Shown: positions 36 to 7,331 of the stretch, in pieces
Numbering within the stretch: position 1 is the stretch's first letter
How the letters are laid out: every line of letters starts with the position of its first letter
Assembly: GCA_040752395.1 (NCBI GenBank)
Contig: JBFMHD010000140.1
Location: forward strand, 1 to 7,331
DNA from: JBFMHD01 sp040752395 [NCBI: Candidatus Hydrogenedentota bacterium]
Lineage (GTDB): Bacteria > JBFMHD01
Direction of reading: 5' to 3'
DNA: 7,331 bases
Translations under genes and position numbers: made by a program
The notes under the pieces: model-generated
What the model saw: the letters and a program-made list of their open reading frames with translations, nothing else
What the model was told of the DNA's origin: nothing
The model's database searches: none

Positions 36-48
36 GATGATATGTTGG

Positions 49-118
49 CTTCGGACTTCGGACTTCAGGCTCCGGGTTCCAGCCGGCTGTAATCCGTAGC
101 CTGTAGCCTGTAGCCTAA
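49..118. repeat. Degenerate heptad-phased tract, ten units
   Basis: Ten consecutive 7-bp units start at 49. The first two are CTTCGGA and the eighth and ninth are AGCCTGT; the units between change gradually. Column 4 is C in all ten and column 6 is G in nine of ten. The tract is far more GC-rich than its surroundings and contains the palindrome at 80-89. Confidence 0.8.
73..96. repeat. Imperfect 24-bp palindrome, left copy
   Basis: The core CAGCCGGCTG (80-89) is a perfect 10-bp palindrome. Arms 73-79 and 90-96 pair further: C73-G96, G74-C95, G75-C94, G76-T93 wobble, T77-A92, T78-A91, with one mismatch at C79/T90. A second copy lies at the right edge of the window. Confidence 0.7.
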
Positions 119-123
119 AACCA

Positions 124-154
124 ACTTCCTTTAAAAAATTCGGAATTCGGAAGT
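124..154 (-). terminator. Weak hairpin downstream of the gene, possible terminator
   Basis: ACTTCC (124-129) pairs with GGAAGT (149-154), a 6-bp stem with a 19-nt loop. On the minus strand it lies about 37 nt after the stop and is followed by TGGTTTT rather than a clean T-run. It is the only terminator-like candidate in the downstream flank, and it is weak. Confidence 0.2.
137..150. repeat. Two AATTCGG heptamers
   Basis: AATTCGG occurs twice in tandem (137-143, 144-150), again with a 7-bp period. It lies between the heptad tract at 49-118 and the octamer tract just downstream of the gene. Confidence 0.75.
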
Positions 155-190: not shown

Positions 191-3100
191 TCATTGTTTT
201 ATCACTGCTATTGGTTTAGTTATAATTTGTGTCGATGTTCCTCGAACAATCTCAAGACGGTAGATATAAAGACCGCTACCCACAAATCTACCTGCATTGT
301 TATCTGCAAACCAGGTTATGTTGTTACCTGAATTCTGATGATATTCAAACGCAAGTTTGCCAGATAAAGTATGGATGTATAAATGTATAGCTGTTATGGT
401 TGCTGGATTATCAAATGAAAATGTAGTGCCATTTTCCGGTGTTACTGGATTATTTGATATATATACTCTCACAGCAGTAGAGCCAGCTCCCATAAGCGTG
501 AATAAACCTAAATGATTAACTGAAGCTGTTATTATATTATTTATAACATTAACCGAGCTTACCTCCTCAATCCATTCATAACCATTATAGTAATATATTT
601 TTAAATCAGCCTCTGCTACTTGATTGCCGTACTGGTCTATTAAATCATTATGGGTATATGGTATAGCTATGGTTACCGGTCTTTGAAGCTGGATATTAGA
701 AGGGGTGAATTTTCTTGTTACCTTTATTGTTCGCTGTGTGTTATCACTTACCGGCGGGATAGAACTAATATCAGGAATAGTTATTGTGACAAGTGTCTGA
801 TCAGTAAAAGCGCCAACTGGCGCTGAAATATAGGTACTATCCTGGGCATATAAAGTGCCACCAGAAGGCCCGAGATAACCGCTTGCCTCAGGCTTTAGAT
901 AATAAATATTTATACTTAAAGTCGTACTATTACCTGCTTCATCACGCGCTATACAAGTTAAAGTATTTGTACCTGGTTTTAAATCTGCAAGTATGGTGAT
1001 AGTTTCACCAGGATTACCTCCATAGACCTGACCTGCTACAAGTTCACTTGAAAAAAGAATCTCAATAGCATTAGAATCATTTACAATAATATCGAGTTGT
1101 ACTTTATCACTAAAAACCTGGTTTTGATATTGATACGAGACTGTTTCGGGCGATAAAGTAACACTCCCGAATGATGGCGGAAGAGTATCAACAATAATAT
1201 ATACCGAGGCTGAGCCTGTATTACCCGCAATATCTGTAACAGTAAGAGTTATCGTATTCCCACCATCTCTTATGCCGCTATCAATCCCAACGTAAAAATC
1301 AAACGGCTCCACCATCTCGTTCCAGGAACCGTCAAGCGGAGATGCACTCGAGTTCATGTTTACAAAACTGTTTATCACATTAACATTCATACTGCTAAGA
1401 TTTACAGCCACATCCTGGGCATAACCTTTAATATTTATATTTGTATAATTTAAAATGCTGTTATTGGAGGGTGAATTAATGACTACGATAACCTGTGCAC
1501 GTGCTACCTGGAAATTTACAATGAGTAGATTGCTAAAATTGCCGTATGTATCATTACTGATAATGAATAAAGAATGGTTCTCATTTGATAAACCTGAGGT
1601 TCTCACAACCGTGGTTCCGAGAGTAATCGAGCCAAAAACAGCTTTTGAGTCAAACCCTGTATCCTGACCAGGATATGCATCAATAGTATATTGTATAGTG
1701 TCCACAGGGAAAGAATAATCCTCGATTTTAACAACTATTAATAAAGTATCAGTTGCAGGATCAGGATTTTTGAGTAACAGAGTTATGGTTCCGCCTGTTT
1801 GAAAGACTGTAAAGTTTCTTGAAGCTACATTACTCCAGTTACCAAGAGTGTCCACACCCGCAACATATAATGTGTGATTGCCCTGTAATAGAGTTCTTAC
1901 AATAATTTGAGCAGTACCATAAGTGGTGACCCCACTTACTACCCACGTATCGAAAATAACAGCCGTGCCCGGATAAGCATCAAGATAGTAATAAATAGTA
2001 TCTATCGGGAAATCATTATCAGTTATACTCACAATGACAGTTATAGAATCCGGTGCAGGATCAGGTGTTAGAGAGATTATAGTCATTGTACCGCCACTCT
2101 GTGAGACTGTAAAAGACTGAGTGACTACATTGCTTGTTTCACCCGCGGTATCTACTGCAAGAGCGTAAAGTGTATGATTACCCTGACTTAGACTCAAAAC
2201 ATTCACTATTGAGGTACCAAAAGTGATGGTGTCTGCTGGAAGAACAGGAACTATTGTATCAATGCCATACGCGGTGGATGGATAAGCATCTATATAATAC
2301 AAAATTGTATCAATAGGATAAGAATAATCATAAACCATAAAAACTATTAGAAATGAATCTGCACTTGGGTCTGGAGTAGGCGGAGTAGAAACAACGATAC
2401 AGACCCTGTTTTTTAGCTCAACAAAGGTCTTTTGTGAGACAGAATTGCCAGCAGTATCATAAACTGTTATATTAACTTGATACACACCATTGGGACGGGA
2501 ATTAGCAAGACTGATGTAATAAGTTATTGTTCCACCATTATTAACTGCTTGATAAGTATCCATTGTCTCAGAGAACATTGAATCAAGATTAGAGAAATCA
2601 CCCTCAATCCGTGCTAAAGCCCCGGTATTCGTAACTGAGATAATCACAGTCTCGCCATTTCTGTAATTAGCCTGTAGAACAGTTAAGGTTGGTGTATCAG
2701 GCGGTGTGTTATCAAGTGCTACAAAAATAATAATACTATCACTGTTAAAAGCAGCATCTCGTAAAAGTATTATAAGATAATATGTCTCAGCATCAGGATT
2801 AGCATTATTCTGCGAAATTTTATAATAAATGGTGCACCCATTTGTGCCCTTGTTTATTACAGAATCACCAGGATATAAAGAATCTATGGTCGCTTGTTCT
2901 ATTGATACTGTAAGCGGACTTGAATCAGACCCGTATGAGATAAAAATACTGATCGTTTCGCCATCTCTATATATTGTATCAGCATCAAGAATTGTGTAGC
3001 CTGTGATATCAGGTGGTGTACTGTCAAACTGAACTATTGCGATCTGCGAATCAATAAGAGAACCACCATTATAAACAAGCACTTTAATCTGGATATAAGG

Positions 3101-6100
3101 TGAATCCGAAGCCTGATTTAAATTGCTTATTGTATGTTCATAACAATATACCGCATCGCTAGGTCTCGTATCACCGAGACCACCAGTATCACTTAATTGT
3201 ATAGTATCAGATTTTGTAGTATCGAGATTTACGAATGTGGTTGTATCAATAACAACATATAAACCAGGTCCGTAACCATAATATCTAATATAAACGCTAT
3301 CTCCATTCTTGAACACAGTATCCCCATCACTCCCGATAATAATAAAGCTACTATCAGGAGTATTTGAATGATATTTAGTATCCCAGCCGATATTTCCAGC
3401 TTTATCTGCTATCTGGACTGTTATATAAGGATCTCCTGAAACGCCAGATGGAACATTAACAATCGCTGAGTCAACTGTTCCATAAGTATCGCTAATACTA
3501 TTATAATTTAATGTAGCAGCATTGATACCATCGATCTTAACTGAGACAGGTGACAGATTCGCGATACCTGATAATGTATCTGAGGCATATATTGACATCG
3601 TAACGATTTGACCGGCTGCAACAACTCCTGAAAGACCTGTAATAATAATACGTGGACGAGTTATATCTACATTCAGAGTTACAGTATCAACACCTGAGAT
3701 ACCACCCTCATCAGTTATGCGAACGCTTACAGAAATAACACCCTCTGTATAAGAACTACTCGATAGTATCACAACACCGCTACATTGACCTATACCTGTA
3801 ACACTATCACCTGTATATCTAATCGTATGATAGGTATCATAAGGTATAATTGACCCATTCCCTGTAACAGTTGCAGATTCACCATTAGGTATGATTGTTT
3901 GTGTTCCGTAATCAGTAACTGAACATAAAAACCAGATGGGATAATCAAGCGGTACCCATTCATTATCAACTGGTGTTAGTATTGTTAAAGTAATCTGATT
4001 AGAACTCTGATAGAATATCGTAATAAAAGTATCAGTAATAGGTCCTGTGTTTAATGCGTTATCTGCAATCGAATCGGTCTTAATAAGAAAAGTATAAACA
4101 CCCTGTGTGTCAGTATCCTTCACTCTATATATAGCTCTCCACATCCCGTTACTGCCTGTGTAATAAATAGTTACAGGTGTTGTATCAATTGCTGAGGTTG
4201 TGTCATCTGGGTTTATTGGTTTGATTATTAATATAGTATCTGTGGTATCAGTATTTTCTTGATTTGTAACAATTTGGCCTGTCTCATAAATATATGTTAA
4301 TTTAAAATCAAGAATAATCTGGTTTGAGTCAGCAGGTGCAAGATATGAGATAGATGTACTTAATTGGGATACCACAATTTTTGCTGTGTCTATTTGAACC
4401 ATATCAAATGGCGGGTTAACAGGGAAAGAATCTACATCATTTGTATTGCCATAAGGGTCTATTAAACTATTTGTCTCAATCTGTATGTCATAGCTCGTGG
4501 CTTCTGTATCATACCGTGTATAAAGTGGTAATCGAAAAGTACTATCAGTAGCAATAATAGTTGGATTATATACAATATATGTATAGGTATCTTCTCCACC
4601 ATTTTTTATTAGTTGTATAGTAATCTGGCTGAGATTAGTAACCGTATCTCCTGTGGGATAAAATGCGCGGACCCGAACATAAATCGTATCAGTTCGCTGT
4701 ATCGGTGAATCTTCAACATAAACCGTATCTATCTCAATAGATGCTGTATCAAGCAGTACACTATCACTAAAATTAACCCAGGAACTGATAAGAGACGTAT
4801 CACCTGAGTACGGGAAATAAGGTCGAGAATCTGTTATAGAGAAGGTCTCTATTATAAGTGCATAATATCCTGAGGTATCAGAGATAGAAGTCGCAAAAGC
4901 AAATCTAATCAATGTATCACCAGGCCCGATTGAGGTATCGCCATAACTGAAAATAACAGTTGTTTCACCTGCACCACCAAGATGGCGCATTATTAGTATC
5001 GCTGTATCGATTACACCAAGATAGGTCCCATCAACAAAACGTAAAGCCACACCAACCCATACTGTGTCACCTTTCTCTACACTCTCTGAATCAAAATAGA
5101 TGTCAGCTATATACCAGCCTGATAAATGTGTTGAATCAGATGAAGTATCTGTGAGGTATAAAGTACCGTCATACGAATCACTTATTAAATTAGCAGGGAA
5201 TACAAGGATGAAATAGCCAGGGGAATCAAAACGCGTGGTATTAAAAACTATTATAAAAGTATCAGAGTTTGTCCCTGTTTCAAGATAATTATTAGTAGAT
5301 ACTATTTTATAATCAGGTGTATCAGGAACTGGTGTAATCGGCACAAGATATATATAAGCGGTATCAAGTACTCTGACATTTATATCTGTCCCGCCAGGTG
5401 TACCAAGACCATTTGTATCATATCTCGCTTCAAAATATGCATAAACGTCACCCGTGATACCAGTATCAAGAGTTATGAATCCTGAATCAAAAATAATAAT
5501 CGGCACATAAACATAAACACTATCGCTTGAAAAAGTTTGAGTTAGAGGGCCTGTATTAGTATTATTGAGTGGTAATCCTGGATAAGTATCAGCTATCGCA
5601 CCGGTTTCTATAAGTATTCGCCAGTATGAAGTTTTTGTGTCAAGCCAGGTTATAATAAAAAGAACATAGGTATCGTTATTAATCTGGGTATCCATACCAG
5701 TTGGCTGCTGTGGATCAAATGTATGAATAGTTGAATCACCCGGGTTTTGTACGTTCTGTAGATATACAGTTAAGGTATCTAAATTCAAGACAGGAACAGG
5801 TGTTGAATCAGGATACAGAAGCCGCATCGTGACTTTTACAAAATTAGTCTTTATTACTGAATCAGCACCTGTGTTAGAATCAGAAAGCGTAATATCAACA
5901 GGTATTATATAAGCAGGTAGTATTGTCACAGTGTCCCAACCAAGAGTAAGGGTATCGTTTTGAGGCCCTTCTGCTACCTTATTACCACCAGGCTCTGATT
6001 TGAAGGAATTTGCTCTAATATATAATATATAATCCCCGGTCGGCGTATCAACATCAGTAAAGAAATAAAAAGTATATACTCCATCAGAGCTTGAAACATC

Positions 6101-7048
6101 TGTTAAAGATTGTGAATAGATAGTGTCAGATGTTCCTGGTCTTGCAAGCATCAGTGTATATTGAGTTGTTAAAAGCGTAACAGGGTTTTGCTCTGCGTTA
6201 ACAAGTTTAACTGAAACCGTGATGGTCTCTGTTCTATAGACCTGAGACTGGACTATATTCATTGAATCAACATTGATGATTTGTTTCAGGACAGCATCTA
6301 CTGATTGGCCGTCAATTTTATTACTGCCATTACTATAATCATTAACAGCTGCTTTGTCTCTACTTAAAGTAATATATCTTGAATCATCATTAATTGTATA
6401 TCCGAAATCAGCGACAGGCGCTGTTGAGATTTCTTCATCGAGAAATATAATAAGTGCATAACCAAGTGTATCAGTTTTTTGCAATCCGCTCAGGCTATCA
6501 GTAAGTGTAACAGTACAGCCACCTACTGGTGACCGCTTATTTGCATCAGTGAAACTGCTAAAACCACGGATATCAAACGCTATGTCTGCAGAAGAATGGT
6601 TCAGGATTTGTAAATATTTGGTATCAACAGCTGAAGAAGTAAAATATGCAACAATGGTCCATGTCTCTATGCCTGGTAAATCAGATGCATTACCATCAGG
6701 CTGAAAATCCTCATCACCGCCACCAATAATCCCGCCTCCTGTGGCACGATAAATTATCGCTGAATCGCCTTGAATAGTTGTAGTCTCCTCAACGGCCCAT
6801 CCAGCAGGCGGCGCTATATCACCTGTAAAATCTATACTTCCTGTTTTTGGGGCGATTATAACTATTCTTGTACAAGCATTCGTACCATTATTTAGCACAT
6901 TAATTGATACTAAATTATTGCTATTAACAGGGACGTAGAGTAGACGCGAGTAATTAGTTGCATCAACACTGATTGTATCCGCAGAATATAGAGGTATTGT
7001 TAGCAAAAGGGTTATAGAGATACAGATGAATAGTCTCTTTATACTCAA
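191..7048 (-). CDS. Giant secreted multi-Ig-domain surface protein with FlgD-like/T9SS-type C-terminal domain
   Basis: This is a 2285-residue open frame without interruption. Residues 1-23 form a Sec signal peptide, followed by a chain of beta-sandwich modules, a ZU5-like segment (2053-2186) and a C-terminal domain resembling FlgD-like/T9SS sorting domains (2187-2285). The start is TTG at 7048-7046: the frame has a TAA stop two codons upstream, the signal peptide begins directly after the TTG, and GAGGT sits 7 nt upstream. The protein is rich in Asp and Thr (about 64 DT dipeptides by hand count) and very poor in Cys, as expected for an extracellular, possibly calcium-binding beta-rich protein. 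The frame ends in three consecutive stops, TGA TGA TAA. I see no enzymatic motif. The likely role is adhesin, stalk or matrix protein; that is inferred from architecture only. It stands alone with its own promoter. A structural subunit of a cell-surface layer is an alternative. Confidence 0.93.
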   Translation of the reverse strand: MSIKRLFICISITLLLTIPLYSADTISVDATNYSRLLYVPVNSNNLVSINVLNNGTNACTRIVIIAPKTGSIDFTGDIAPPAGWAVEETTTIQGDSAIIYRATGGGIIGGGDEDFQPDGNASDLPGIETWTIVAYFTSSAVDTKYLQILNHSSADIAFDIRGFSSFTDANKRSPVGGCTVTLTDSLSGLQKTDTLGYALIIFLDEEISTAPVADFGYTINDDSRYITLSRDKAAVNDYSNGSNKIDGQSVDAVLKQIINVDSMNIVQSQVYRTETITVSVKLVNAEQNPVTLLTTQYTLMLARPGTSDTIYSQSLTDVSSSDGVYTFYFFTDVDTPTGDYILYIRANSFKSEPGGNKVAEGPQNDTLTLGWDTVTILPAYIIPVDITLSDSNTGADSVIKTNFVKVTMRLLYPDSTPVPVLNLDTLTVYLQNVQNPGDSTIHTFDPQQPTGMDTQINNDTYVLFIITWLDTKTSYWRILIETGAIADTYPGLPLNNTNTGPLTQTFSSDSVYVYVPIIIFDSGFITLDTGITGDVYAYFEARYDTNGLGTPGGTDINVRVLDTAYIYLVPITPVPDTPDYKIVSTNNYLETGTNSDTFIIVFNTTRFDSPGYFILVFPANLISDSYDGTLYLTDTSSDSTHLSGWYIADIYFDSESVEKGDTVWVGVALRFVDGTYLGVIDTAILIMRHLGGAGETTVIFSYGDTSIGPGDTLIRFAFATSISDTSGYYALIIETFSITDSRPYFPYSGDTSLISSWVNFSDSVLLDTASIEIDTVYVEDSPIQRTDTIYVRVRAFYPTGDTVTNLSQITIQLIKNGGEDTYTYIVYNPTIIATDSTFRLPLYTRYDTEATSYDIQIETNSLIDPYGNTNDVDSFPVNPPFDMVQIDTAKIVVSQLSTSISYLAPADSNQIILDFKLTYIYETGQIVTNQENTDTTDTILIIKPINPDDTTSAIDTTPVTIYYTGSNGMWRAIYRVKDTDTQGVYTFLIKTDSIADNALNTGPITDTFITIFYQSSNQITLTILTPVDNEWVPLDYPIWFLCSVTDYGTQTIIPNGESATVTGNGSIIPYDTYHTIRYTGDSVTGIGQCSGVVILSSSSYTEGVISVSVRITDEGGISGVDTVTLNVDITRPRIIITGLSGVVAAGQIVTMSIYASDTLSGIANLSPVSVKIDGINAATLNYNSISDTYGTVDSAIVNVPSGVSGDPYITVQIADKAGNIGWDTKYHSNTPDSSFIIIGSDGDTVFKNGDSVYIRYYGYGPGLYVVIDTTTFVNLDTTKSDTIQLSDTGGLGDTRPSDAVYCYEHTISNLNQASDSPYIQIKVLVYNGGSLIDSQIAIVQFDSTPPDITGYTILDADTIYRDGETISIFISYGSDSSPLTVSIEQATIDSLYPGDSVINKGTNGCTIYYKISQNNANPDAETYYLIILLRDAAFNSDSIIIFVALDNTPPDTPTLTVLQANYRNGETVIISVTNTGALARIEGDFSNLDSMFSETMDTYQAVNNGGTITYYISLANSRPNGVYQVNITVYDTAGNSVSQKTFVELKNRVCIVVSTPPTPDPSADSFLIVFMVYDYSYPIDTILYYIDAYPSTAYGIDTIVPVLPADTITFGTSIVNVLSLSQGNHTLYALAVDTAGETSNVVTQSFTVSQSGGTMTIISLTPDPAPDSITVIVSITDNDFPIDTIYYYLDAYPGTAVIFDTWVVSGVTTYGTAQIIVRTLLQGNHTLYVAGVDTLGNWSNVASRNFTVFQTGGTITLLLKNPDPATDTLLIVVKIEDYSFPVDTIQYTIDAYPGQDTGFDSKAVFGSITLGTTVVRTSGLSNENHSLFIISNDTYGNFSNLLIVNFQVARAQVIVVINSPSNNSILNYTNINIKGYAQDVAVNLSSMNVNVINSFVNMNSSASPLDGSWNEMVEPFDFYVGIDSGIRDGGNTITLTVTDIAGNTGSASVYIIVDTLPPSFGSVTLSPETVSYQYQNQVFSDKVQLDIIVNDSNAIEILFSSELVAGQVYGGNPGETITILADLKPGTNTLTCIARDEAGNSTTLSINIYYLKPEASGYLGPSGGTLYAQDSTYISAPVGAFTDQTLVTITIPDISSIPPVSDNTQRTIKVTRKFTPSNIQLQRPVTIAIPYTHNDLIDQYGNQVAEADLKIYYYNGYEWIEEVSSVNVINNIITASVNHLGLFTLMGAGSTAVRVYISNNPVTPENGTTFSFDNPATITAIHLYIHTLSGKLAFEYHQNSGNNITWFADNNAGRFVGSGLYIYRLEIVRGTSTQIITKPIAVIKQ
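194..490 (-). other. C-terminal FlgD-like/T9SS-type sorting domain (residues 2187-2285)
   Basis: The last 99 residues carry the usual elements of this family in order: VRVYISNNPVTPENGTTFSF (compare '..NPFNPETTIRFSL'), a strand LYIHTLSGKLAFEY (compare 'IYDLTGRLVR'), NITWFADNNAGRFVGSGLYI (compare 'WDGRDDNGRPVASGVY'), YRLEIV, and a terminal KPIAVIK. In Bacteroidetes such domains direct proteins through the type IX secretion system; in other phyla the closely related FlgD-like Ig fold is often called by the same models. Whether this organism uses T9SS cannot be decided here. Confidence 0.8.
491..892 (-). other. ZU5-like domain (residues 2053-2186)
   Basis: The segment GPSGGTLYAQDSTYISAPVG followed by AFTDQTLVTITIP matches the characteristic 'GGxL......I.VP.GAL...T.I.I' opening of ZU5-like domains. 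It continues through a strand-rich stretch (RPVTIAIPYTHNDL) to YYYNGYEWIEEVSSVNV and an FTLMG ending. The latter part resembles the 'YYDG..W..V..' region that closes such modules in bacterial surface proteins. The function in bacteria is unclear; it is probably a structural module next to the sorting domain. Confidence 0.65.
893..1504 (-). other. Two bacterial Ig-like modules (residues 1849-2052)
   Basis: The first module begins VIVVINSPSNNSILNYTNIN and ends TLTVTDIAGNTGSASVYIIV. The second begins after the DTLPPSF linker at residue 1954 and ends TLTCIARDEAGNSTTLSINI. Both show the 'N.P..N......I.G.A.D' opening and 'G.N.ITLTVTDIAGN' closing patterns of bacterial Ig-like (glucodextranase-B-like/Big) domains. 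They sit directly before the ZU5-like segment. Confidence 0.7.
1505..2404 (-). repeat. Three tandem ~100-aa beta-sandwich repeats with 'NHTLY..DTxGNxSN' signature (residues 1549-1848)
   Basis: Units are about residues 1549-1651, 1652-1751 and 1752-1848. Equivalent points in units 2 and 3 lie exactly 300 bases apart, and units 1 and 2 lie 309 bases apart. Each unit contains, in order: PDPxxDS/T, an Asp-Tyr/Asp-Phe turn (YSYPIDTILYYIDAYP, DFPIDTIYYYLDAYPG, SFPVDTIQYTIDAYPG), a TxGTxxV strand, GNHTLYxxxVDTxGxxSN (third copy ENHSLFIISNDTYGNFSN), and an FxV ending. The closing segment is the fibronectin-III/Ig-like type common in adhesins. The higher similarity compared with residues 257-1018 points to a younger duplication. 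Confidence 0.75.
2405..3364 (-). repeat. Three tandem surface-protein modules with 'xGDxV..I' start and 'xTPPD' linkers (residues 1229-1548)
   Basis: Units are about residues 1229-1341, 1342-1445 and 1446-1548. The linkers NTPDSS, DSTPPD and DNTPPD mark the boundaries. After each linker comes a strand with a Gly-Asp/Gly-Glu turn (KNGDSVYIRYYG, YRDGETISIFIS, YRNGETVIISVT). The second and third units then carry a 'TIDSLYPGDS' or 'NLDSMFSETM' segment, TxYYIS, and a closing 'DxAxNS' strand. This is a module often seen in large bacterial surface proteins. Units 2 and 3 are the most alike; unit 1 is diverged in its second half. Confidence 0.6.
3365..3994 (-). other. Two bacterial Ig-like modules (residues 1019-1228)
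   Basis: The first module starts at ITLTILTPVDNEWVPLDYPI and ends with SVSVRITDEGGISGVDTVTL. The second starts at DITRPRIIITGLSG and ends with VQIADKAGNIGWDT. The 'V.I.D..GN/GG......' closing strand before a 'D.T.P' linker is typical of bacterial Ig-like modules found in large adhesins. They most likely act as spacers. Confidence 0.6.
3995..6280 (-). repeat. Six divergent protein repeats of 120-140 aa (residues 257-1018)
   Basis: Approximate units are residues 257-376, 377-516, 517-644, 645-769, 770-889 and 890-1018. Each repeats the same order of elements: an opening strand with xxDTIxVxVxL, a YPDGT/YPTGD-like turn followed by VTxL, a strand with TIxL, a middle DTxxxF strand, a (D)TxxGxYxIxIETxSI strand and a closing Asp-rich segment such as DTVxI. 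Unit 5 is the clearest (TDTIYVRVRAFYPTGDTV, later SYDIQIETNSLIDPYG). The 'GxYxFxF...DxPTGxYxLxI' signature recalls MG2-like/bacterial Ig domains (alpha-2-macroglobulin family), but sequence identity between units is low. The repeat is seen at the protein level only; the DNA units have diverged. Confidence 0.6.
6281..6535 (-). other. Carboxypeptidase-regulatory-like segment with weak dockerin-like motif (residues 172-256)
   Basis: The string SPVGGCTVTLTDSLSG followed by TDTLGY resembles the 'PVSGVTVTLTGT...DTTDSTGYY' pattern of carboxypeptidase-regulatory-like/prealbumin-fold domains. It then runs into NDYSNGSNKIDGQSVDAVLK (residues 236-255). This looks like one half of a dockerin-type calcium loop plus helix, preceded by a 'GYTI.DDS' stretch. 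The loop is longer than the canonical 12 residues and lacks some of the expected Asp ligands, so binding of calcium or a cohesin is doubtful. The call rests on pattern resemblance only. Confidence 0.35.
6536..6979 (-). other. N-terminal extracellular domain of unknown family (residues 24-171)
   Basis: The mature N-terminus has alternating beta-strand character (LLYVPVNSNNLVSINVLNNG, then RIVIIAPKTGSIDF). It includes a Gly-rich loop (GGGIIGGGDEDF, around residue 105). The pattern of NNG followed by hydrophobic strands resembles domains of the type that describe non-ideal or 'no-pileup' beta sandwiches, but I do not recognise the family. It is not clearly homologous to the repeats that follow. 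Confidence 0.45.
6980..7048 (-). other. Sec signal peptide (residues 1-23)
   Basis: MSIKRLF gives a short positive n-region. It is followed by a hydrophobic core (ICISITLLLTIPL) and a likely signal peptidase I site after Tyr-Ser-Ala (YSA|DT). There is no lipobox cysteine, so this is a plain secreted precursor rather than a lipoprotein. It fits with the C-terminal sorting-type domain. Confidence 0.88.
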
Positions 7049-7093: not shown

Positions 7094-7122
7094 ATTATAA
7101 CTTTATAATTAAAATAAGTCAA
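7094..7122 (-). promoter_or_regulatory. Sigma70-type promoter of the giant surface-protein gene
   Basis: Read on the minus strand, TTGACT (7122-7117) is followed by a 17-bp AT-only-but-one spacer and a perfect TATAAT (7099-7094). This is five of six at -35, six of six at -10, with ideal spacing. The start would be near 7087, giving a leader of about 39 nt to the TTG start codon. The spacing and match make this one of the clearest signals in the window. Confidence 0.8.
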
Positions 7123-7134
7123 GTTTTAGATTTA

Positions 7135-7154
7135 AAAAGATTCAAAGATTGAAA
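7135..7154. repeat. Right arm of a perfect 20-bp inverted repeat bracketing the gene
   Basis: This stretch (two octamer-like units, GATTCAAA at 7139 and GATTGAAA at 7147, preceded by AAAA) is the exact reverse complement, 20 of 20, of 167-186. The match ends sharply on both sides. It lies 12 bp upstream of the -35 element, so the pair encloses the promoter and the whole gene. Confidence 0.8.
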
Positions 7155-7181
7155 TTTTTTCTGATACTTCTTACTTTCAAA

Positions 7182-7213
7182 GGCACAGAGGCACAGAGGC
7201 ACAAAGGCACAAA
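7182..7213. repeat. Octamer tract (GGCACAGA/GGCACAAA), four copies
   Basis: GGCACAGA occurs at 7182 and 7190 and GGCACAAA at 7198 and 7206. The four tandem 8-bp units show one substitution that has spread to two adjacent copies, as expected from duplication of neighbours. Confidence 0.85.
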
Positions 7214-7222
7214 GTATGAAAA

Positions 7223-7250
7223 GAGTCACAAGTCGCAAGTCGTGAGTCAA
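7223..7250. repeat. Heptamer tract (GAGTCAC/AAGTCGC), four units
   Basis: Four 7-bp units: GAGTCAC (7223), AAGTCGC (7230), AAGTCGT (7237), GAGTCAA (7244). AGTC is constant at columns 2-5. A 5-bp interruption separates it from the next tract. Confidence 0.75.
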
Positions 7251-7255
7251 AACAG

Positions 7256-7331
7256 GACTCGAGACTCAAGACTCAAGACTCAAGACTTTTCAGCAGGCTT
7301 TGGGCTTTTGGCTCCAGCCGGCTGTAGTCCG
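7256..7331. repeat. Heptad-phased tract running to the window edge (GACTCAA unit, then degenerate)
   Basis: It begins with GACTCGA (7256), three GACTCAA (7263, 7270, 7277) and GACTTTT (7284). It then continues in the same 7-bp phase through degenerate units at 7291, 7298, 7305, 7312, 7319 and 7326, where column 6 is G in all six and column 4 is C in four. The last three units match the left tract around 77-96. The tract is cut by the end of the window. Confidence 0.75.
7308..7331. repeat. Imperfect palindrome, right copy
   Basis: The core CAGCCGGCTG (7315-7324) is identical to the left copy. Flanking pairs T7313-A7326, C7312-G7327, G7311-T7328 wobble and G7310-C7329 hold, with the same single mismatch next to the core (C7314/T7325). 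The 18 bp at 7314-7331 match 79-96 at 17 of 18 in direct orientation. Confidence 0.65.

What the first reader, a model, noticed from the sequence alone, without database searches (positions are those of the whole stretch)
49..118. Hidden heptad phase with two nearly invariant columns in a drifting intergenic tract
Divided into 7-bp units from position 49, the tract has C in column 4 in 10 of 10 units and G in column 6 in 9 of 10. Yet the unit changes from CTTCGGA at one end to AGCCTGT at the other. Simple slippage followed by random drift would not be expected to keep two fixed columns. Either the two positions are under selection (for example contacts by a protein that reads one site per 7 bp) or units are continually copied with mutation at the other columns. 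Heptameric short tandem repeats (STRRs) are known from cyanobacteria, but this gradual change with fixed columns is not something I recognise.
Basis: partly seen in the sequence, partly recalled or inferred. Interest (0 to 1): 0.6.

Follow-up and report, generated by a model that had tools for sequence, protein, structure and literature searches.

The report
Imperfect hairpin built from heptad repeats
The "drifting repeat with two fixed columns" is the two complementary arms of one long imperfect hairpin made of 7-base repeats, a kind of intergenic repeat already described in other bacteria, so the fixed columns need no special protein to explain them.

Summary
The counts are right: C in column 4 in 10 of 10 units, G in column 6 in 9 of 10. 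The interpretation misses the main feature. The tract lies inside an inverted repeat, 44-125, axis 84.5, no spacer: 30 of 41 Watson-Crick pairs plus 3 G-T. About that axis column 4 pairs with column 6. A C-x-G rule in one arm therefore reappears as C-x-G in the other, while columns 1-2 change from CT to AG. The unit does not drift; it flips to its diverged reverse complement halfway. In arm frame, column 2 is as conserved as 4 and 6, and column 1 is always C or T.

Palindromic order exceeds what the heptads alone give (2 of 1000 unit-order permutations). Two columns at 19 of 20 is unremarkable for a tandem heptad array of this similarity. A second core copy at 7298-7331 keeps G6 but has T in column 4 in 2 of 5 units.

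Heptads with fixed and variable columns, and inverted pairs of them, are published for Xanthomonas (PMC4692102); I also found them in Acidobacteriota genomes. Best reading: a heptad-armed hairpin beyond the 3' end of the long minus-strand gene; function not shown. New member of a known kind.

The parts
44..125 (.). Whole inverted repeat (imperfect hairpin or cruciform), axis 84.5, GTTGG/CCAAC clamp at its base
   Evidence: I1: 41-nt arms, 73% complementary, 0 nt between; 30 Watson-Crick + 3 G-T of 41; the next best zero-gap palindrome with 41-nt arms in the window has 23; RNA fold of 40-129: minus strand -39.7 kcal/mol, z -5.18, plus strand -34.2, z -3.63; as DNA z -2.55
49..84 (+).
   Evidence: T2 5/5, C4 5/5, G6 5/5, C1 4/5 in units 1-5
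85..118 (+).
   Evidence: A1 4/4, C4 4/4, G2 3/4, G6 3/4 in units 7-10
7298..7331 (+). Second copy of the core in the same heptad phase, cut off by the window end (left arm, axis and start of right arm)
   Evidence: ungapped 27 of 34 identical to 63-96; 0 of 1000 shuffles of 7281-7331 align as well; 18-mer core 7314-7331 differs at 1 base from 79-96
7221..7290 (.). Another heptad hairpin, AAGTCGC...GAGTC / GACTCAA..., 14-nt loop
   Evidence: 28-nt arms, 71% complementary; AGTCGCA and GACTCAA arrays; fold of 7130-7331 minus strand z -3.91
191..7048 (-). 2285-aa ORF; the hairpin lies 66 to 147 nt beyond its stop codon on the same strand
   Evidence: Pfam Big_13 (bacterial Ig-like) E 1.2e-12

Best explanation
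Positions 44-125 are one imperfect inverted repeat whose arms are tandem heptads. It arose from tandem heptad growth plus inverted copying (or selection for pairing), and if transcribed it would fold into a long hairpin with mismatches recurring about once per heptad. The fixed C and G columns are paired partners across the axis, so they look invariant through the tract while other columns change letter at the axis. Shown: the inverted symmetry, the column mapping, the predicted fold, a second copy of the core, similar heptad hairpins in other bacteria. Inferred, not shown: that it is transcribed beyond the 3' end of the minus-strand gene and acts there, if at all, as an RNA hairpin (3'-end protection or a weak transcript-end signal); it may equally be a passive repeat. 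The confidence given is for the structural reading, not for a function.
For: Inverted repeat. Palindrome score 15 against mean 7.6 for unit-order permutations (2 of 1000 as good) and 6.9 for column permutations (0 of 1000). A pure tandem model with about the observed lag-7 identity gives 24 or more of 34 pairs, the observed number, in 0.06% of 10,000 runs. Minus-strand fold z -5.18, 0 of 200 shuffles as good. Elsewhere: in genome G394 heptad arms in reverse-complement order give 207 counted matches (overlapping registers included) and the opposite arm order 0; the variable heptad column pairs across arms in 26 of the 32 printed sites against 13.7 expected. Published precedent: PMC4692102 section 10 (read).
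Against: Folding energy of 49-118 alone is not exceptional against unit-order permutations (77 of 1000 as good on the plus strand, 287 of 1000 on the minus strand) or column permutations (58 and 122 of 1000). The outer heptads pair poorly (3 and 4 of 7). With one sequence, selection for pairing cannot be told from inverted copying. In the inverted model two columns at 19 of 20 occur in 0.2-19% of runs over the settings tried, 7-19% at 10% unit divergence, the settings nearest the observed lag-7 identity, so inversion alone does not force the rule. No terminator-like site in 1-400, no Rfam match in the window. No transcript data. The source genome is not held.
Confidence: 0.85

Rival explanations
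1. A protein reads one site per 7 bp, touching the C and the G, so that only these columns are kept.
For: C4 10/10 and G6 9/10; G6 is 5 of 5 also in the second copy at 7298-7331 (units printed).
Against: Column 2 is as conserved and column 1 nearly so once the arm is taken into account. C4 is T in 2 of 5 units of the second copy. Columns 4 and 6 are palindrome partners, and the rule's only exception sits at a mismatch.
Confidence: 0.06
2. Passive heptad microsatellite: slippage plus template switching on a quasi-palindrome makes both arms, without any function. This is compatible with the structural reading above.
For: Several different heptad and octad arrays in the same intergenic stretches. 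Heptads are reported over-represented among simple repeats in many bacterial genomes and as the most abundant class of 5-11 nt repeats in most genomes, with polymerase slippage proposed as the reason (PMC4692102, PMC4679880; passages). Energies of 49-118 alone are within unit permutations.
Against: Fold of 40-129 minus strand z -5.18. In G394 arm order is one-sided and the variable column pairs across arms although loops are unrelated; slippage alone would not be expected to give the same heptad at unrelated loci (inference).
Confidence: 0.4
3. Intrinsic transcription terminator of the minus-strand gene.
For: It starts 66 nt after the stop codon on that strand and folds well there.
Against: No terminator-like site in 1-400 on either strand; what follows the stem on that strand is ATATCATCTACTTTTTGCC, no immediate T run. 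Of 17 heptad hairpin sites in G394 and G374, 8 lie between same-strand ORFs, 3 between divergent, 1 between convergent and 5 inside a crudely called ORF.
Confidence: 0.1

Closest known systems
GGGAATC heptameric repeats of Xanthomonas and GGGGA(C/T)T of Nostoc (PMC4692102; section 10 read in full, other passages seen)
   Same: Intergenic heptads with conserved positions (1-4 and 6) and variable ones, (GGGANTN)n; 70 cases in Xcc and 75 in Xac of two tracts in convergent orientation close together, noted there as possible stem-loops or cruciforms.
   Different: Here the unit is not G-rich; the arms abut without a loop and have diverged from each other.
Tandem heptanucleotides of cyanobacteria such as Calothrix
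   Same: Tandem heptanucleotides in several sequence versions.
   Different: As far as I recall they are described as direct arrays; the inverted arrangement is the main feature here.
TAACTGA repeats of Beggiatoaceae (PMC4679880, abstract and passages seen)
   Same: Dispersed, mostly intergenic heptamers, suggested role at RNA level.
   Different: Direct repeats of one heptamer; 169 direct sets and one inverted case.
Heptanucleotide elements of Geobacter metallireducens (PMC2700814, passages seen)
   Same: Dispersed elements of four (49 places) or five (15 of 16 sites) tandem heptads, proposed there as regulatory elements.
   Different: Other sequences, fixed number of units; whether these classes are inverted I did not see.

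Membership tests
Heptameric intergenic tandem repeat (simple-repeat type) | Head-to-tail 7-bp units in non-coding DNA | tested here: met
   arrays at 1-33, 49-66, 96-116; lag-7 identity 42/63 in 49-118; outside the long ORF (an unsupported 64-aa open frame overlaps it)
Heptameric intergenic tandem repeat (simple-repeat type) | Many copies dispersed in the genome | tested here: inconclusive
   Second core copy at 7298-7331 in the window; source genome not held
Inverted heptad pair (as in Xanthomonas) | Two heptad tracts as reverse complements, close together | tested here: met
   (diverged: 30 of 41 Watson-Crick)
Inverted heptad pair (as in Xanthomonas) | G-rich unit of the type GGGANTN | tested here: not met
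   1 of 10 units holds GGG; so it is arranged like, but is not a member of, the GGGAATC family
Rho-independent terminator | GC-rich stem followed at once by a T run | tested here: not met
   0 found in 1-400
Known structured RNA family | Match to an Rfam model at gathering score | tested here: not met
   0 matches in the window
REP/MITE-type mobile hairpin | Conserved ends, target-site duplication, partner transposase | not tested
   source genome not held

The most novel reading that the evidence does not exclude
The tract belongs to an unrecognised, cross-phylum class of heptad-armed hairpins: arms of genome-specific heptads in a fixed left-right order, unrelated loops, and a variable column that pairs across the arms. 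In one Acidobacteriota-group genome (G394) one such pattern has 207 counted matches (overlapping registers included) in one arm order and none in the other, which would point to a shared recognition or copying machinery rather than to local slippage.
Probability: 0.25. Interest if true: 0.6.

Novelty: new member of a known kind. Interest (0 to 1): 0.3.

Why it matters
It removes a puzzle: an apparent position-specific constraint disappears when the tract is read as two arms of one hairpin. The check is general: before inferring selected columns in a drifting tandem repeat, test for an axis of inversion. The wider pattern (same heptads at unrelated loci, one arm order only, different loops) is in print in part for Xanthomonas, but I saw no explanation of its cause, and genomes such as G394, with 32 sites printed in one capped listing, would let it be tested.

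Tried and rejected
Search for the 18-mer core CCAGCCGGCTGTARTCCG in genome contigs: 21 stretches, none in a heptad context (lag-7 identity 0.20-0.35 in 21 of 21), so treated as chance. Pattern GTAGCCTGTAGCCTGTAGCC in 198 genomes of the phylum of G015: 0. Window 40-129 by BLAST in 148 genomes of the phylum of G013: 0, and the tool warns that such an empty answer shows nothing. A CTTCGGA hairpin pattern in viral contigs: 0. A palindromic core pattern in viral contigs: one place, with no heptad array in the 211 bases read around it. Plasmids: weak matches in 3 records, all to the AGAAGCA array at 1-34, none to the tract; none for 7120-7331. Eight paper searches showed nothing closer than PMC4692102; the library lacks most subscription journals. 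Terminator and Rfam ideas rejected.

Limits of counts. One search scanned the window and L032-L071 but for six loci (L035, L037, L038, L039, L054, L060) that I took for duplicates; L045 and L046 look like reverse copies of each other and were both kept. Of its 57 tracts, 10 had palindrome z of 5 or more (mononucleotide shuffles, 30-nt flanks included), and two of those (L049, L053) look due to other palindromes. L068 passed no tract threshold. In one search the backwards control pattern also matched, in G007 (10) and G008 (8), because it is itself a heptad pattern. One search used 87 of the 100 places printed (13 intermediate places of one array on contig C14 left out), of 126 + 136 counted. 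One search used the 32 sites printed, of 207 counted matches. The arm-order patterns allow loops of 0-24 nt only.

Full report
What was checked. Shuffles almost never reach this (0 of 20,000 at period 7 in each of two kinds). Lag-7 identity is 42 of 63, with echoes at 14 (33 of 56) and 21 (23 of 49).

What it is. The repeat finder shows an inverted repeat with arms 44-84 and 85-125, 41 nt each, 73% complementary, nothing between them. I paired every base x with 169-x: 30 Watson-Crick pairs and 3 G-T of 41. No other zero-gap palindrome with 41-nt arms in the window has more than 23. So a left arm of type CT-C-G gives a right arm of type AG-C-G: the C and the G stay in place because they swap with each other, and columns 1 and 2 appear to change. 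Left units 1-5 have T2 5/5, C4 5/5, G6 5/5, C1 4/5; right units 7-10 have A1 4/4, C4 4/4, G2 3/4, G6 3/4. Folding both arms into one frame (five left units and their mirrors) gives T2 10/10, G6 10/10, C4 9/10, C1 7/10 (T in the other 3), column 5 always A or G, and columns 3 and 7 mixed. The change from CTTCGGA to AGCCTGT is therefore mainly a flip at the axis, not a gradual drift. The one exception in column 6 (A117) faces C52 as a mismatch.

Controls. Permuting the order of the ten units keeps both fixed columns but mostly loses the palindrome (score 15 against mean 7.6, 2 of 1000 as good); permuting columns gives 0 of 1000. Against this, the folding energy of 49-118 without the GTTGG/CCAAC clamp is not exceptional against unit permutations (77 and 287 of 1000 as good, plus and minus strand) or column permutations (58 and 122 of 1000). 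With the clamp, 40-129 folds at -39.7 kcal/mol on the minus strand (z -5.18, 0 of 200 dinucleotide shuffles as good) and -34.2 on the plus strand (z -3.63, 2 of 200). In simulations a plain tandem array at 20% divergence has about the observed lag-7 identity and reaches two columns at 19 of 20 in 51% of runs, but reaches 24 of 34 pairs (the observed number) in 0.06%. An inverted array at 10% unit divergence reaches 24 pairs in 71-100% of runs and the two columns in 7-19%; at higher divergence the two columns are rarer, down to 0.2%. So two near-fixed columns are ordinary in a tandem heptad array; the palindrome is the unusual part.

Second copy. The end of the window, 7298-7331, aligns without gaps to 63-96, 27 of 34 identical, same phase (0 of 1000 shuffles align as well). 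Its units are CTTTGGG CTTTTGG CTCCAGC CGGCTGT AGTCCG: G6 in 5 of 5, C4 in only 3 of 5. A further heptad hairpin lies at 7221-7290 (GAGTC/GACTC type).

Surroundings. The tract is outside a 2285-aa minus-strand ORF (191-7048) with a bacterial Ig-like domain, and the hairpin starts 66 nt beyond its stop. No terminator-like site in 1-400, no Rfam match. No genome is held for the window, so the organism and the genome-wide rule could not be tested.

Elsewhere. The pattern GACTCNNGACTCNNGACTC was found in 2 of 21 genomes reached through unrelated loci (G008, G015); its backwards control, itself a heptad pattern, matched in 2 of 21 (G007, G008). Heptad tracts were also found in viral contigs, often with some columns fixed and others variable. 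In G008, 3 of 9 fetched tracts (L062, L064, L070) have palindrome z of 5 or more. G008 holds L008, titled a Terriglobia MAG, a class of Acidobacteriota. Of 60 genomes of that phylum, 2 (G374, G394) hold GAGTCNNGAGTC-loop-GACTCNNGACTC and 0 of 60 hold the opposite order. The related pattern CTGAGNNCTGAG-loop-CTCAGNNCTCAG, seen as the backwards control, matched in 3 of 60 (G374 2, G394 207, G407 4); in G394 the opposite order has 0. Among 57 tracts made from printed GAGTCCTGAGTCCTGAG places of G394, all 10 close pairs on opposite strands have the same order. In the 32 sites printed no two loops are identical or share a 9-mer, and the variable heptad column pairs across arms in 26 of 32 (13.7 expected, 0 of 20,000 shuffles). 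All 26 are two combinations, A-T and C-G (13 each), so this may reflect two subfamilies rather than many independent changes. Crude ORF calls around all 17 sites gave 8 between same-strand ORFs, 3 divergent, 1 convergent and 5 inside a called ORF, which does not favour a terminator.

Literature. PMC4692102 (section 10 read in full; passages elsewhere) describes heterogeneous (GGGANTN)n heptads with conserved positions 1-4 and 6, and 70 and 75 convergent pairs in two Xanthomonas genomes that could form stem-loops or cruciforms. PMC4679880 and PMC2700814 (passages) describe other dispersed heptads. So heptads with fixed columns, and inverted pairs of heptad tracts, are both in print.

Judgement. 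Most likely this is a heptad-armed hairpin, either passive or acting at RNA level; which of the two is not decided here.

Noticed in passing
167-186 and 7135-7154: A 20-nt stretch TTTCAATCTTTGAATCTTTT just beyond the stop of the long ORF recurs as its exact reverse complement just upstream of the ORF (octad arrays): the ORF is flanked by an inverted octad repeat.
   Followed up: partly
7178-7214: Octad array CAAAGGCA, 4.6 copies, beside the heptad tracts: period 8 and period 7 arrays occur side by side.
   Followed up: no
1-33: A separate heptad array AGAAGCA, 4.7 copies, beginning at the window start.
   Followed up: no
L083-L095 (genome G394): Many heptad hairpins with one arm order, unrelated loops and a variable column that pairs across arms.
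   Followed up: partly
L056:52-233: Viral contig with long GAAGTCC heptads interrupted by a recurring CTGGAATAC unit, palindrome z 13.7.
   Followed up: no
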